NCBI GenBank assembly: GCA_024711025.1
Contig: JANJTP010000030.1
Location: 1 to 60,408, forward strand
From: Solirubrobacteraceae bacterium
Lineage (GTDB): Bacteria > Actinomycetota > Thermoleophilia > Solirubrobacterales > Solirubrobacteraceae
Reading direction: 5' to 3'
Length of the DNA: 60,408 bases
Part shown: positions 17,618-22,488 of the stretch, piece by piece
Layout: the number at the start of each line of letters is the position of its first letter
How positions within the stretch are numbered: position 1 is the first letter of the stretch
The notes under the pieces: model-generated
Database searches by the model: none
The model's input: the letters and a program-made list of their open reading frames with translations, nothing else
Told to the model about the DNA's origin: nothing
Position numbers and translations under genes: made by a program

Positions 17618-18481
17618 TCAGGAGACGGCGAGCCGACCGAACTTCTCGCGCAGGCGCCGATAGAACGTCGACCCGGGCATCAACGCGAGCGTCGTCGCCT
17701 CGCGCAGGAAGCCGCAGGTGATGCTCTCGTCGGGCCCGACCTCACCGGTGGGCCGTCCGTCGACCGACACGTCGACCGCGCCGACCGACCGGTTGTGCAC
17801 GGTGAGCAGATCGCCGGGCGCGACGACCAGCGAGCGCGCAGTCAGGGAATGCGGCGCGATGAACGAGACGACGAAGCCCTCCACGCCCCAGGCCAGGACC
17901 GGTCCGCCGTTGGCGAGGTTGTAGCCCGTCGAGCCTGCCGGCGTCGCCACGACCAGGCCGTCGCAGCGCACGCTGCCGACCTCCTCGCCGCCGATCGCGT
18001 ACGACAGGTTCGCGACGCGCTCGCCCGGCTTGCGCGTGATCGCCACGTCGTTCACCGCGGGACGGCCGTCGTCGCCGTCGTGGTCGACGGTGAGCGCCGA
18101 GAGCGTCAGCGTCTCGAAGTCGCCTCCGAGCGCGCGTTCGAAGCCGCCGATCAGCTCGTCGCGGTCGATCGTCGCCAGGAACCCGATCTCGCCGAAGTTG
18201 ACTCCGAAGACCGGCACGCCGGTCCCCGCGAAGCGCCGCAGCGCGCGCAGGATCGTCCCGTCGCCGCCGAGCGCGATCGCGAGCCGCGGCAGCTCGCCGG
18301 AGGTGTCGTCCAGCTCGACGCCCGGACCGGGAGCTATCGCCGGGTGCTTGCGCGTCTCGTCGCGGTCCAGCTGGACGACGCAGCCGTGGGCACCGGCCAG
18401 CGCGACGAGGTGGCGTAGCGCGTCATCGGTCTCCCCGGGCCGGGCATGGGAGAGCACCGCGATCGTCTCCGACCCGCTCAT
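17618..18481 (-). CDS. nadK: NAD kinase
   Basis: About 287 aa. It phosphorylates NAD to NADP. It has the GGDGTILRALR motif, FGVNFGEIGFLA, the VNDVAI NAD-binding stretch and TPAGSTGYNLANGGPV. ATG 18481 overlaps the tlyA stop by 4 bases (ATGA), so the long upstream extension of the frame was discarded. The tlyA-nadK-recN order is common in actinobacteria and many firmicutes. Confidence 0.96.
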   Translation of the reverse strand: MSGSETIAVLSHARPGETDDALRHLVALAGAHGCVVQLDRDETRKHPAIAPGPGVELDDTSGELPRLAIALGGDGTILRALRRFAGTGVPVFGVNFGEIGFLATIDRDELIGGFERALGGDFETLTLSALTVDHDGDDGRPAVNDVAITRKPGERVANLSYAIGGEEVGSVRCDGLVVATPAGSTGYNLANGGPVLAWGVEGFVVSFIAPHSLTARSLVVAPGDLLTVHNRSVGAVDVSVDGRPTGEVGPDESITCGFLREATTLALMPGSTFYRRLREKFGRLAVS

Positions 18482-19275
18482 GCGGCCACCTTCGCCAGCG
18501 CTGCCCCCGGATCCTCCAGGGCGCCGGAGCGCGTTCCCTCGGCCAGCCACGCGAACGTCTCGACATTGCCCTTGGGCCCCGGCAGCCCCGACGACGCGAA
18601 CCCCATCACCGCCGCTCCGCACGCCGACCGGGCGAAGTCGGCGACCGTCAGAACGGCCGCGCGGCGAATCTCCGGATCGCGCACCACCCCTCCCTTGCCG
18701 ACGTGCTCGCGCCCCGCCTCGAACTGCGGCTTGACCATGACGAGCGCGTCCCAGGCGGGCGCGCAGCAGGCGAGCACGGCGGGCAGCACCTTCGTCAGCG
18801 AGATGAAGGCGACGTCCGCGACGACCAGGTCCGGCGCGTAGGGCAGGTCGCCCGGCAGCAGGCTGCGAGCGTTGCGGCGCTCCAGGACCGTGACGCGCGG
18901 GTCTCCCCGCAGCCGCCAGTCGAGCTCGCCGTAGGCGACGTCGAGCGCGACGACGTGCTCGGCCGCTCGCTGCAGGAGGCAGTCGGTGAAGCCGCCGGTC
19001 GAGGCGCCGACGTCGAGCGCACGGCGGTCGGCGACGTCGACCGCCAGCGCGTCGAGCGCGTTGGCCAGCTTGAGCCCGCCGCGCGAGGCGAAGCGCGGGG
19101 CCTCGTCGACCGCGAGGGGCACGTCCTCGCCGACGAGCTGCCCGGGCTTGGCCGCCCGCTCGCCGTGATCACCGATCCGGACCTCGCCGGCCATGACGGA
19201 GGCGGCCGCCCTGGCGCGCGAGGGGAAGAGCCCGCGCCGGGCGAGCAGGGTGTCGATACGAACCTTCGTGGCCAT
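18478..19275 (-). CDS. tlyA: TlyA family rRNA 2'-O-methyltransferase / hemolysin homologue
   Basis: 265 aa. The N-terminal S4 RNA-binding domain (VRIDTLLARRGLFPSR) is followed by a Rossmann methyltransferase domain with LDVGASTGGFTDCLL, ADVAFISL, VKPQFEAG and the Glu of NVETF, giving the K-D-K-E tetrad of 2'-O-methyltransferases. TlyA methylates C1409 of 16S and C1920 of 23S rRNA in mycobacteria; substrate identity here is inference. It is the first gene of the nadK-recN-steA run. Two CRP-type palindromes lie 33 and 61 bp upstream of its ATG. Confidence 0.95.
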   Translation of the reverse strand: MATKVRIDTLLARRGLFPSRARAAASVMAGEVRIGDHGERAAKPGQLVGEDVPLAVDEAPRFASRGGLKLANALDALAVDVADRRALDVGASTGGFTDCLLQRAAEHVVALDVAYGELDWRLRGDPRVTVLERRNARSLLPGDLPYAPDLVVADVAFISLTKVLPAVLACCAPAWDALVMVKPQFEAGREHVGKGGVVRDPEIRRAAVLTVADFARSACGAAVMGFASSGLPGPKGNVETFAWLAEGTRSGALEDPGAALAKVAA

Positions 19276-19307: not shown

Positions 19308-19323
19308 TGTGACGTCGCTCACA
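19308..19323. promoter_or_regulatory. Perfect CRP/GlxR-type site, TGTGA-N6-TCACA (site 1)
   Basis: TGTGA at 19308-19312, six bases, then TCACA at 19319-19323. This is the exact consensus of the CRP/GlxR family known from enterobacteria and actinobacteria. Its centre is about 40 bp upstream of the tlyA start codon. Which side it controls is not known. Confidence 0.75.
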
Positions 19324-19335
19324 GACGGCATGTTG

Positions 19336-19351
19336 TGTGATACGCGTCACA
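19336..19351. promoter_or_regulatory. Perfect CRP/GlxR-type site, TGTGA-N6-TCACA (site 2)
   Basis: TGTGA at 19336-19340 and TCACA at 19347-19351. The centre is 28 bp from site 1, so both face nearly the same side of the helix less a fraction of a turn. A second exact match so near the first makes chance very unlikely. AT-richer sequence follows toward 19370. Confidence 0.75.
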
Positions 19352-19505
19352 AAAGAAATGGTCGGAATATCGCACCATGCTTCTTGCGCCCCACGGAAAG
19401 CGCTCCGACGGGGCAAAGACTTCCCTCAGTGATCACATAGCTGGACCCAAATAGCAGTATCTCTCCTCCCCTGAGACGGCCCGCTTCGGCGGGCCGTTTC
19501 TCTTC
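19352..19505 (+). ncRNA. Candidate small RNA or leader between the CRP-type sites and a terminator
   Basis: No convincing gene lies on the plus strand between tlyA and the terminator at 19473-19505, yet the terminator is oriented for plus-strand transcription. The stretch is AT-richer than its surroundings and carries a CU-rich block (CTCTCCTCCCC at about 19461-19471) just before the terminator stem, complementary to Shine-Dalgarno sequences. A 36-codon ATG frame from about 19330 exists but looks fortuitous. The 5' end is not determined. I could not match it to a known riboswitch or RNA family. Confidence 0.4.
19473..19505 (+). terminator. Intrinsic terminator, 12-bp stem with UUCG loop
   Basis: The stem has arms 19473-19484 and 19489-19500 (core ACGGCCCGC / GCGGGCCGT, outer G-T wobble then A-T and G-C) closed by a C(TTCG)G tetraloop. 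The last bases of the 3' arm and what follows form a T-rich tail, TTTCTCTTCC. The tail exists only on the plus strand. Confidence 0.8.
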
Positions 19506-19646: not shown

Positions 19647-21593
19647 TCAGGCGCCCGCGACGATCTCGCCGCTGACGCCCAGCGCCACGCGGATGCGCTC
19701 GGCGATCGCCTCGCCCGTGAAGCCGACCTCGGCGTGCAGCAACGCCGGCTTGCCGTGCGTCACGAAGCGATCGGGCAGGCCGACGCGGATGATCCGCGGC
19801 GTCGGGATCCCCCGCTCGTTGCAGTGCTCCCAGACCGCGCTGCCGAAGCCCCCCTGCAGCACGCTCTCCTCGACCGTCACGAGCAGCTCGTGCTCGGCGC
19901 ACAGCTGCGCGATCAGGGCGCCGTCGAGCGGCTTGGCGAAGCGTGCGTCGGCGACCGTCGGCCGGACCCCGCGGCGCGAGAGCAGCTCCGCTGCCTCCAG
20001 GGCCCGCTGGACGCCCGTCCCGTAGCCGAGCAGTGCGACGTCGCGGCCCTCGCTCAGGATCTCGCCGGTGCCGACCTCGATCGCCGGCGGCTCCTCGGGG
20101 AGCGGCGCTCCGACGCCCTCGCCGCGCGGGTAGCGCAGCGCGACCGGCCCGTCGTCGATCAGCAGCGCGGTGCGCAGCATCCGCACGAGCATCGCCTCGT
20201 CGCGGGGCGCCATCAGCGTCATGTTCGGCAGCGCGCGCAGGTACGAGACGTCGAATGCGCCGTGATGGGTCGGCCCGTCGTCGCCGACGAGCCCGGCGCG
20301 GTCCATCGCGAAGACGACGTTGAGCCCCTGCAGCGCGACGTCGTGCACGATCTGGTCGAACGCCCGCTGGAGGAAGGTCGAGTAGATGGCGCAGACCGGC
20401 TTGGCGCCCTCCAGCGCGAGCCCGGCAGCGAACAGCACCGCCTGCTGCTCGGCGATCCCGACGTCGAAGTAGTGGTCGGGCTCGGCATTCTGGAGGATGC
20501 TCAGGCCGGTGCCCGAGTTCATCGCCGCGGTGATGCCCACGACCCGGCGGTCGCGACGCACCTCGGCAACCATGGCATCGCCGAAGACCTCGGTGTACGT
20601 CGGCGGCTTGGCAGCGGCGCTCGCCGGCGCCGGACGCGAGGGCACAGGCGCGCCGTCGGCGATCGAGTTGGGCTTGGCCGCGTGCCAGCGCTCCATCCCC
20701 TCCAGACCGCCCTCCTCGGCGGGGGCGAAGCCCTTGCCCTTGACCGTGGCGACGTGGACGACGACCGGCCGCGCGGCGGCGAACGCGGCGCGCAGCGCCT
20801 GGCGCAGCGCTGCGACGTCGTGGCCGTCGACGACGCCGACGTAGGCCCAGTCGAGCTCCTCCCAGAAGAGCCCCGGCGCCCAGAACGCCTTGATCGACTC
20901 CTTGAGCTGCGGGCCGAGCCGCTCGAAGCGGGCGCCGATCCCGCCGGGCAGCTGGGCGAGCCGGCCCTCGACGCCCTCTCGCGCGTGCCAGAAGCGAGGG
21001 TTGAGCCGCACGCGGTTGAAGTAGCGCGAGAGCGCGCCGACGTTCGGCGCGATCGACATGCCGTTGTCGTTGAGCACGACGACCATCGGCGTGCCGAGCC
21101 CGCCCGCCTGGTGGATCGCCTCGAACGCGACGCCGCCGGTCATCGCACCGTCGCCGATCACCGCCACGACCTTGCCGGCGTCGGGCCGGCCGAGCAGCCG
21201 CATGCCCTCCTTGAGGCCGACGCCGTAGCCGATCGACGTGGAGGCGTGGCCGGCGCCCATGATGTCGTGGACGCTCTCGGAGGGTGCGCAGAACGGGGCA
21301 AGCCCGCCGTACTGGCGGATCGTGCCGAGCTGGTCGCGGCGCCCGGTCAGCACCTTGTGCGGGTACGCCTGATGGCCGACGTCCCAGAGGATCTTGTCGC
21401 GCGGCGAGTCGAGCAGCGAGTGCAGCGCGACCGCGAGCTCGCAGGTCCCCAGGTTCGCCCCGAAGTGCCCGCCGATCTCGCCGACGGTGTCGATGATGTG
21501 CTCGCGGACCTGCTGCGCGACCGTCTGGAGCTCCTCGTCGCTCAGACCGTGGAGATCCTGCGGTCGGTCGATCCTGTCGAGGAGGCGCGTCAT
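19647..21593 (-). CDS. dxs: 1-deoxy-D-xylulose-5-phosphate synthase
   Basis: About 648 aa. This thiamin-diphosphate enzyme opens the MEP isoprenoid pathway (pyruvate plus glyceraldehyde 3-phosphate). It shows WDVGHQAYPHK, FGAGH-type GAGHASTSIGYG, the TPP motif GDGAMTGG...LNDNGMSI, VKGKGF, and the C-terminal transketolase part with DVGIAEQQAV, GDDGPTHHGAFD and RYPRG. The start is ATG 21593, preceded by GGAG at 8 bases; the frame runs further upstream into the prenyl synthase gene. It lies 4 bp after that gene, so precursor supply and chain elongation are co-transcribed. Confidence 0.97.
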   Translation of the reverse strand: MTRLLDRIDRPQDLHGLSDEELQTVAQQVREHIIDTVGEIGGHFGANLGTCELAVALHSLLDSPRDKILWDVGHQAYPHKVLTGRRDQLGTIRQYGGLAPFCAPSESVHDIMGAGHASTSIGYGVGLKEGMRLLGRPDAGKVVAVIGDGAMTGGVAFEAIHQAGGLGTPMVVVLNDNGMSIAPNVGALSRYFNRVRLNPRFWHAREGVEGRLAQLPGGIGARFERLGPQLKESIKAFWAPGLFWEELDWAYVGVVDGHDVAALRQALRAAFAAARPVVVHVATVKGKGFAPAEEGGLEGMERWHAAKPNSIADGAPVPSRPAPASAAAKPPTYTEVFGDAMVAEVRRDRRVVGITAAMNSGTGLSILQNAEPDHYFDVGIAEQQAVLFAAGLALEGAKPVCAIYSTFLQRAFDQIVHDVALQGLNVVFAMDRAGLVGDDGPTHHGAFDVSYLRALPNMTLMAPRDEAMLVRMLRTALLIDDGPVALRYPRGEGVGAPLPEEPPAIEVGTGEILSEGRDVALLGYGTGVQRALEAAELLSRRGVRPTVADARFAKPLDGALIAQLCAEHELLVTVEESVLQGGFGSAVWEHCNERGIPTPRIIRVGLPDRFVTHGKPALLHAEVGFTGEAIAERIRVALGVSGEIVAGA

Positions 21594-21597
21594 CTGG

Positions 21598-22488
21598 TCA
21601 GCTCCGGCGCGTGGCGATGAAGTCGGTGATCTGCTCGAGCTCGGGGGCGCCGGCGGGCGCCGCGAGCGCGAGGGCGCCACGCGCCTTGCGTTGTGAGGCT
21701 AGCGCCAGCTCACGTGCGCCGGCGAGCCCGAACTCGCTCACGTACGTGTGCTTGCCGTGCCGCTCGTCGGTGCCCGGGGCCTTCCCGAGCGCCGCCCCCG
21801 TGCCGGTGACGTCGAGGATGTCGTCGACGATCTGGAAGAGGACGCCGAGCTCGCGGGAGAACTCACGGAACGGGCCGATCTGCGGCTCGCGCATCCCGTG
21901 GACGAGGCACACACACTCGACGCTCGCGCCGATCAGCCGCCCGGTCTTCATCTCGTGCAGGTGGCGCAGCCCCTCGGCCCCGCCGGGCCCGGAGCCGGCG
22001 ACGTCGATGTACTGCCCGCCCACCATCCCGCCGACCCCGGTCGCCGCGGCCAGCTCGGCCACGGCGGCGAGCACGTCGCTCGGCTCGCCGGGCTGCTCCG
22101 TCAGGATCAGCCTGAAGGCCTCGGCGTAGAGCCCGTCGCCCGCGAGGATCGCGACGTCCTCGCCGAACGCCACGTGGCACGTGGGACGCCCGCGGCGCAG
22201 CTCGTCGTCGTCCATCGCCGGAAGGTCGTCGTGGATCAGCGAGTAGGTGTGGATCAGCTCGATCGCCCCGGCGAGCGCCAGCACGGAGTCCGCCTCGCGG
22301 CCCAGGGCGCGGGCGGTCGCCAGCGCCAGCACCGGGCGGATGCGCTTGCCGCCGGCGAGCAGCGAGTAGCGCATCGCCTCCTCGAGGCCGGCTGTCGCCT
22401 CGTCGCGAGCGAAGCGCAGGCCCTCGAGGTAGCGTTCGACGCACCGTCGCAGCACGTCCGGGTAGCCGACGGCCGGCTCAGCGAGCAC
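21598..22488 (-). CDS. Trans-polyprenyl diphosphate synthase (IspA/geranylgeranyl type)
   Basis: 296 aa. It condenses IPP with allylic diphosphates. The first aspartate-rich motif is HDDLPAMDDDELRRG and the second is FQIVDDILDVTG. GGKRIRP and the KTGRLIGAS region match IspA/CrtE. The product length (C15 or C20) cannot be set from sequence by eye. GTG 22488 follows the xseB stop by 6 bp. The gene order xseB-ispA-dxs is widespread. Confidence 0.93.
   Translation of the reverse strand: MLAEPAVGYPDVLRRCVERYLEGLRFARDEATAGLEEAMRYSLLAGGKRIRPVLALATARALGREADSVLALAGAIELIHTYSLIHDDLPAMDDDELRRGRPTCHVAFGEDVAILAGDGLYAEAFRLILTEQPGEPSDVLAAVAELAAATGVGGMVGGQYIDVAGSGPGGAEGLRHLHEMKTGRLIGASVECVCLVHGMREPQIGPFREFSRELGVLFQIVDDILDVTGTGAALGKAPGTDERHGKHTYVSEFGLAGARELALASQRKARGALALAAPAGAPELEQITDFIATRRS

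What the first reader, a model, noticed from the sequence alone, without database searches (positions are those of the whole stretch)
19352..19505. Candidate CRP-controlled small RNA with anti-Shine-Dalgarno block
A strong intrinsic terminator with a UUCG loop and T-tail points to plus-strand transcription, but no plus-strand gene precedes it. Just before the stem is CTCTCCTCCCC, complementary to Shine-Dalgarno sequences, as in C-rich regulatory RNAs such as actinobacterial 6C. Tandem CRP-type sites lie upstream. Together this looks like an undescribed regulatory RNA.
Basis: partly seen in the sequence, partly recalled or inferred. Interest (0 to 1): 0.62.

Follow-up and report, generated by a model that had tools for sequence, protein, structure and literature searches.

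The report
CRP-controlled anti-Shine-Dalgarno small RNA family
Between the tlyA and dxs genes of this soil-type actinobacterium lies what looks like a gene for a small regulatory RNA, switched on by the cAMP-type regulator CRP and carrying an exposed C-rich stretch that should block ribosome-binding sites; the same element is conserved across a bacterial order (Solirubrobacterales) and I found it in neither Rfam nor the open literature searched.

Summary
The window (Solirubrobacterales) has two perfect TGTGA-N6-TCACA sites, a -10 hexamer, a C/U-rich block (CUCUCCUCCCC) and a strong terminator, all on the plus strand between divergent tlyA and convergent dxs. A covariance model built from relatives finds the element in four families of the order. 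In all 47 curated loci a CRP-type site lies exactly 21 bp before a NANNNT hexamer in the direction of the RNA, while no spacing stands out towards tlyA and the spacers are nearly random: the signature of a class II CRP promoter (centre about -41.5, start near 19385). The stem covaries (11 of 13 pairs) while the unpaired anti-SD block is almost invariant. Other lineages of the phylum lack it at tlyA (0 of 28). In about a third of loci the same promoter drives a small SPW-like membrane-protein gene and the element is its 3'UTR; in the window the RNA stands alone. Some genomes have tandem or dispersed copies. Rfam has no match. Most likely a CRP-activated, trans-acting sRNA that occludes Shine-Dalgarno sites, functionally like enterobacterial CyaR. 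Transcription and targets are inferred, not shown; target prediction was not discriminating.

The parts
19308..19323 (.). distal CRP-type site TGTGACGTCGCTCACA (centre about -69.5)
   Evidence: perfect TGTGA-N6-TCACA; a second site is also present in several same-genus relatives
19336..19351 (.). proximal CRP-type site TGTGATACGCGTCACA (centre 19343.5, about -41.5: class II position)
   Evidence: 47 of 47 curated loci have such a site exactly 21 bp before the -10 hexamer
19373..19378 (+). -10 hexamer CACCAT (NANNNT)
   Evidence: in families f2-f4 the same place reads TANNNT
19385..19505 (+). inferred small RNA, about 120 nt; start inferred from the promoter, end from the terminator
19388..19414 (+). 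5' hairpin GCCCC..GGGGC, variable among relatives
   Evidence: fold
19419..19428 (+). ACTTCCCTCA, a second C/U-rich block found in many relatives
   Evidence: sequences
19453..19459 (+). conserved AGCAGTA leading into the anti-SD block
19461..19471 (+). anti-Shine-Dalgarno block CTCTCCTCCCC, 3' part predicted unpaired (p 0.96-1.0 for the last seven bases)
   Evidence: invariant CTCTCCTCC in A1, near-invariant in 47 loci, unpaired probabilities
19473..19500 (+). intrinsic terminator hairpin GAGACGGCCCGC-TTCG-GCGGGCCGTTTC, followed by T-rich tail to 19505
   Evidence: covariation
18478..19275 (-). tlyA, divergent neighbour, conserved synteny
19647..21680 (-). dxs, convergent neighbour in the window and many relatives

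Best explanation
A stand-alone gene for a CRP-activated small RNA of about 120 nt. A CRP/GlxR-like regulator bound at -41.5 (19336-19351) recruits RNA polymerase to the -10 at 19373-19378 (class II activation; inferred from geometry). The transcript ends at the conserved terminator at 19473-19505 and exposes CUCUCCUCCCC, which pairs with G/A-rich Shine-Dalgarno regions of trans-encoded mRNAs and blocks ribosome binding (inferred). The element is linked to tlyA across the order and, in about a third of sampled relatives, is the 3'UTR of a CRP-driven small SPW-like membrane-protein gene; the coding part has apparently been lost repeatedly, leaving promoter plus 3' module as an sRNA, as in the window. 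Shown: sequence anatomy, conservation, fixed promoter geometry, covariation, synteny. Inferred: transcription, activation rather than repression, SD pairing, targets, direction of gene loss.
For: 47 of 47 loci with a CRP-type site exactly 21 bp upstream of NANNNT towards the RNA, next commonest spacing 11 of 47; towards tlyA none at 21 and at most 6 at any spacing; spacers only 33% identical (28% expected). Stem covariation: 11 of 13 pairs with changes on both sides, 96.7% of cells paired, 0 of 500 shuffles, slid controls 39-53%, against a near-invariant unpaired block. Synteny test starting from tlyA: CRP-21-NANNNT in 19 of 31 order members versus 1 of 28 outgroups; with anti-SD plus terminator 12 of 31 versus 0 of 28. 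Copies away from tlyA (L069-L072) and tandem copies (L074, L075) each have their own CRP-21-(-10). A CRP-like regulator with cNMP domain and Crp HTH is in the same genome. Hairpin-only hits elsewhere lack the anti-SD block (L023-L026). Gene-containing loci in f1, f2, f3 and label changes on the tlyA tree.
Against: No transcript data. Target prediction was not discriminating: duplex energies of candidates (-25 to -36) overlap other SD-led candidates in the window (median -28.7), and transport genes among exact-complement SD sites (about 11 of 44, read by eye) do not clearly exceed control SD sites (about 5-7 of 21). The direction of the gene/stand-alone change is not proven (3 to 11 changes; weak tree). 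The first base of the window -10 (C) is not canonical. The 47 loci share ancestry, so they are not 47 independent events, and they were found by similarity to the element.
Confidence: 0.72

Rival explanations
1. The CRP sites serve tlyA and the hairpin is just a (bidirectional) terminator for dxs; there is no small RNA.
For: tlyA and dxs are on the minus strand; the CRP sites lie in the tlyA upstream region; the stem is palindromic and the model also scores its reverse strand weakly.
Against: No fixed spacing to any hexamer on the tlyA side; the plus-strand tail is the T-rich one; the element is also found away from tlyA and where no dxs was detected in the fetched flank; ordinary terminators of the same genomes lack the anti-SD block.
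Confidence: 0.08
2. It is the leftover 3'UTR of a lost CRP-driven gene, kept by chance or only as a terminator, without trans activity.
For: Relatives carry an SPW-like gene between the same promoter and the same element.
Against: Promoter geometry and the unpaired block stay conserved where the gene is absent, in many lineages; stand-alone tandem copies exist (L074, L075); the block is conserved while spacers are not.
Confidence: 0.08
3. A CRP-controlled RNA that acts not on mRNA SD sites but as a sponge of another RNA or of an RNA-binding protein that prefers C/U-rich single strands.
For: The conserved stretch extends 5' of the anti-SD core (CACAUAGCAGUAU), more than SD pairing needs; other RNAs sharing GCAGUA/CUCUCCUCC exist, one class with complementary GAGGAGAGG; SD-target ranking was not discriminating.
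Against: The most invariant part is exactly the anti-SD core; no partner identified.
Confidence: 0.12

Closest known systems
CyaR (RyeE) of Enterobacteria
   Same: CRP-dependent stand-alone sRNA that pairs with an SD sequence (ompX) (PMC11795201)
   Different: no Rfam match here; CyaR is Hfq-dependent in Yersinia, Hfq was not searched for here; different phylum; here the seed lies just 5' of the terminator and the element can be a 3'UTR
alpha-r14 / NfeR1 and 'cuckoo' RNAs of alphaproteobacteria
   Same: ultraconserved CCUCCUCCC anti-SD motif in unpaired regions, stems variable in sequence, confirmed targets are ABC transporter components (PMC10746234)
   Different: three hairpins each with the motif there, one motif next to the terminator here; NfeR1 is regulated by LsrB and NtrC, not CRP
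6C RNA (B11) of actinobacteria
   Same: C-rich pairing segment, actinobacterial
   Different: 6C forms two stem-loops with six conserved cytosines (PMC8628891); no 6C match here even at E 10
VcdRP of Vibrio cholerae
   Same: CRP-controlled RNA with a small protein plus a cytosine-stretch base-pairing segment acting on carbon-transport mRNAs (PMC8672173); resembles the gene-containing loci
   Different: repressed, not (as inferred here) activated, by CRP; 29-aa ORF; no homology
Mcr11 of Mycobacterium tuberculosis
   Same: actinobacterial intergenic sRNA located between cAMP-linked genes, binds upstream of start codons
   Different: regulated by AbmR; different locus; no Rfam match here

Membership tests
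CRP-activated sRNA (functional kind, as CyaR) | CRP site in an activating position relative to the sRNA promoter | tested here: met
   distance from site to -10 fixed in 47/47 loci; activation itself not shown
CRP-activated sRNA (functional kind, as CyaR) | CRP-dependent transcript | not testable with these tools
   needs RNA from wild type and crp mutant
CyaR (Rfam family) | covariance-model match | tested here: not met
   no match
anti-SD trans-acting sRNA (functional kind) | conserved, unpaired CCUCC-type block | tested here: met
anti-SD trans-acting sRNA (functional kind) | pairs with SD of specific mRNAs | tested here: inconclusive
   candidates found but not above controls
alpha-r14 / cuckoo RNA | several hairpins each carrying CCUCCUCCC in unpaired regions | tested here: not met
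   single block 5' of the terminator
6C RNA | Rfam 6C match; two C-rich hairpin loops | tested here: not met
   no match at E up to 10; fold shows one unpaired block
rsmX/CsrB-type RNA | Rfam match above gathering score | tested here: not met
   18.9 bits versus gathering 56, with the best-aligned part at the terminator

The most novel reading that the evidence does not exclude
In Solirubrobacterales an anti-SD 'seed plus terminator' module is shared between the 3'UTR of a CRP-driven small membrane-protein mRNA, stand-alone CRP sRNAs born by repeated loss of that coding sequence, tandem and dispersed copies, and non-CRP sRNAs in the same genomes (including a second candidate in this genome), forming an order-wide riboregulatory network in which one mRNA's 3' end has repeatedly become an independent sRNA gene.
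Probability: 0.4. Interest if true: 0.75.

Novelty: new member of a known kind. Interest (0 to 1): 0.6.

Why it matters
If true it gives what would be the first described sRNA family for Solirubrobacterales (no earlier report found in the papers searched), a little-studied lineage, with a known upstream signal (CRP) and a defined seed. It would be a convergent counterpart of CyaR outside Proteobacteria, and its alternation between 3'UTR and stand-alone gene offers many parallel cases for watching an mRNA turn into an sRNA.

Tried and rejected
Rfam at gathering and permissive thresholds: only chance-level, mostly terminator matches. Target prediction: near-complement SD sites in the own genome include two amino-acid permeases, an ABC substrate-binding protein, an aldehyde dehydrogenase and hydantoinase B; family-wide GGAGGAGAGATG sites include SatP-like transporters, ABC binding proteins, rhamnose mutarotase and xylose isomerase, but control SD patterns gave a similar share of transport genes and duplex energies did not separate candidates from background. 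Gene names for these candidates are read by eye from the N-termini, not from Pfam. Model hits in other orders of the class: three inspected, one lacks the anti-SD block (L084), two have C/U-rich stretches but no CRP site (L364, L365); left unresolved.

Full report
Setting. The finding lies between tlyA (18478-19275, minus) and dxs (19647-21680, minus) in a 3.1 Mb, 72-contig genome; named records that carry the element are mostly Solirubrobacteraceae/Solirubrobacterales, including Svornostia abyssi. No plus-strand gene precedes the terminator.

The observation. The stretch carries two perfect TGTGA-N6-TCACA palindromes, a NANNNT hexamer, a C/U-rich block CTCTCCTCCCC at 19461-19471 and a 12-bp UUCG terminator with T-rich tail. 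The predicted RNA 19385-19505 folds better than shuffles (z -3.2) and leaves the 3' part of the block unpaired.

Conservation. A DNA search finds the 3' part in 22 of 61 relatives, a few of them hairpin only. Nineteen sequences gave an alignment with nine invariant consecutive bases, CTCTCCTCC, outside the stem and a covariance model. Over 399 genomes of the class, strong matches fill the family and reach other families of the order; weaker matches in other orders were mostly not followed, and one inspected is a bare terminator (L084). In 47 diverse loci 11 of 13 stem pairs show changes on both sides (shuffles 4.8 +/- 1.2) while the unpaired block is almost invariant.

Promoter. Choosing only by best CRP score, 47 of 47 loci have A and T at positions 2 and 6 of the hexamer exactly 21 bp downstream of the CRP site; the next best spacing has 11, and on the tlyA side nothing stands out. 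Spacers between the two are 33% identical against 28% by composition. In families f2, f3 and f4 the hexamer is mostly TANNNT. With a start 7 nt after the hexamer the site centre lies at -41.5, the class II position (from general knowledge of E. coli CRP promoters). The genome has a CRP-like protein (cNMP domain and Crp HTH; among solved structures it matches CRP/FNR-family regulators best over its full length) with a recognition-helix motif SSRESASR resembling that of CRP (comparison from memory). The loci share ancestry, so the count is not 47 independent events, but spacer divergence shows that the distance is under constraint.

Unbiased check. Starting from tlyA rather than from the element, 19 of 31 order members have the CRP-21-hexamer upstream against 1 of 28 genomes of other lineages, and 12 against 0 also have a strict anti-SD plus terminator (the pattern misses several true copies, for example L369 and L371).

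Gene or no gene. In 14 of 40 tlyA-linked loci about 400-475 bp separate promoter and element; in the loci translated, most of these hold a small membrane protein related to the SPW repeat domain (PF03779, below the curated cut-off). This arrangement occurs in f1, f2 and f3, so it is probably old, and the tlyA tree needs 3 to 11 changes. The simplest reading is repeated loss of the coding part, leaving a CRP-driven sRNA, but repeated gain or exchange is not excluded.

More copies. Genus g39 genomes have several copies away from tlyA, and two g14 genomes have tandem copies each with its own CRP-21-hexamer and inferred RNAs as short as about 70 nt. This genome holds a second candidate at G000:C33:53387-53469 with CACCUCCUCCC and a terminator but no CRP site; related loci and a third, more structured class were seen.

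Function. The block is complementary to GGGGAGGAGAGAU. In this genome near-perfect complements sit at the SD of two permease-like genes, a binding-protein gene, an aldehyde dehydrogenase and a hydantoinase. Family-wide, exact sites look catabolic, but controls are not clearly different and duplex energies do not discriminate. SD occlusion therefore rests on the anatomy and on precedents: CyaR (PMC11795201), NfeR1 (PMC10746234) and VcdR (PMC8672173).

Verdict. This is a new family of a known kind of regulator, with an unusual 3'UTR/stand-alone history; direct RNA evidence is missing.

Noticed in passing
G000:C33:53387-53469 (L339:1501-1583): A second anti-SD RNA candidate in the same genome (CACCUCCUCCC plus terminator, possible -35/-10, no CRP site); L360 and L361 look like relatives.
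   Followed up: partly
L347, L349-L352, L354, L357 (about 1480-1690): A third class: 5' region containing GGAGAG/GAGGAGAGG, complementary to the shared AGCAGUA(U/C)CUCUCCUCCC seed, then terminator; no CRP site.
   Followed up: partly
21-nt spacers of L003, L017, L019, L045, L050, L051, L061, L063: Perfect or near-perfect palindromes (for example TGACTGGCCAGTCA, GTTGCGTCCGCAAC) between CRP site and -10, suggesting a second regulator; in several f3 loci the spacer keeps CGCACATACGTTCG.
   Followed up: no
L074 (3100-3177 and 3381-3468, minus); L075 (2733-2806 and 3850-3937): Tandem sRNA copies, each with its own CRP-type site and -10.
   Followed up: partly
L364 (1536-1622), L365 (1552-1648): C/U-rich block plus terminator in another family of the class without a CRP site; may be distant members or chance.
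   Followed up: no
L003, L005, L007, L017, L019, L021, L045, L048, L050, L054, L061, L076-L078, L080: Small SPW-like membrane-protein gene downstream of the CRP-type promoter, possibly leaderless or with a very short leader.
   Followed up: partly
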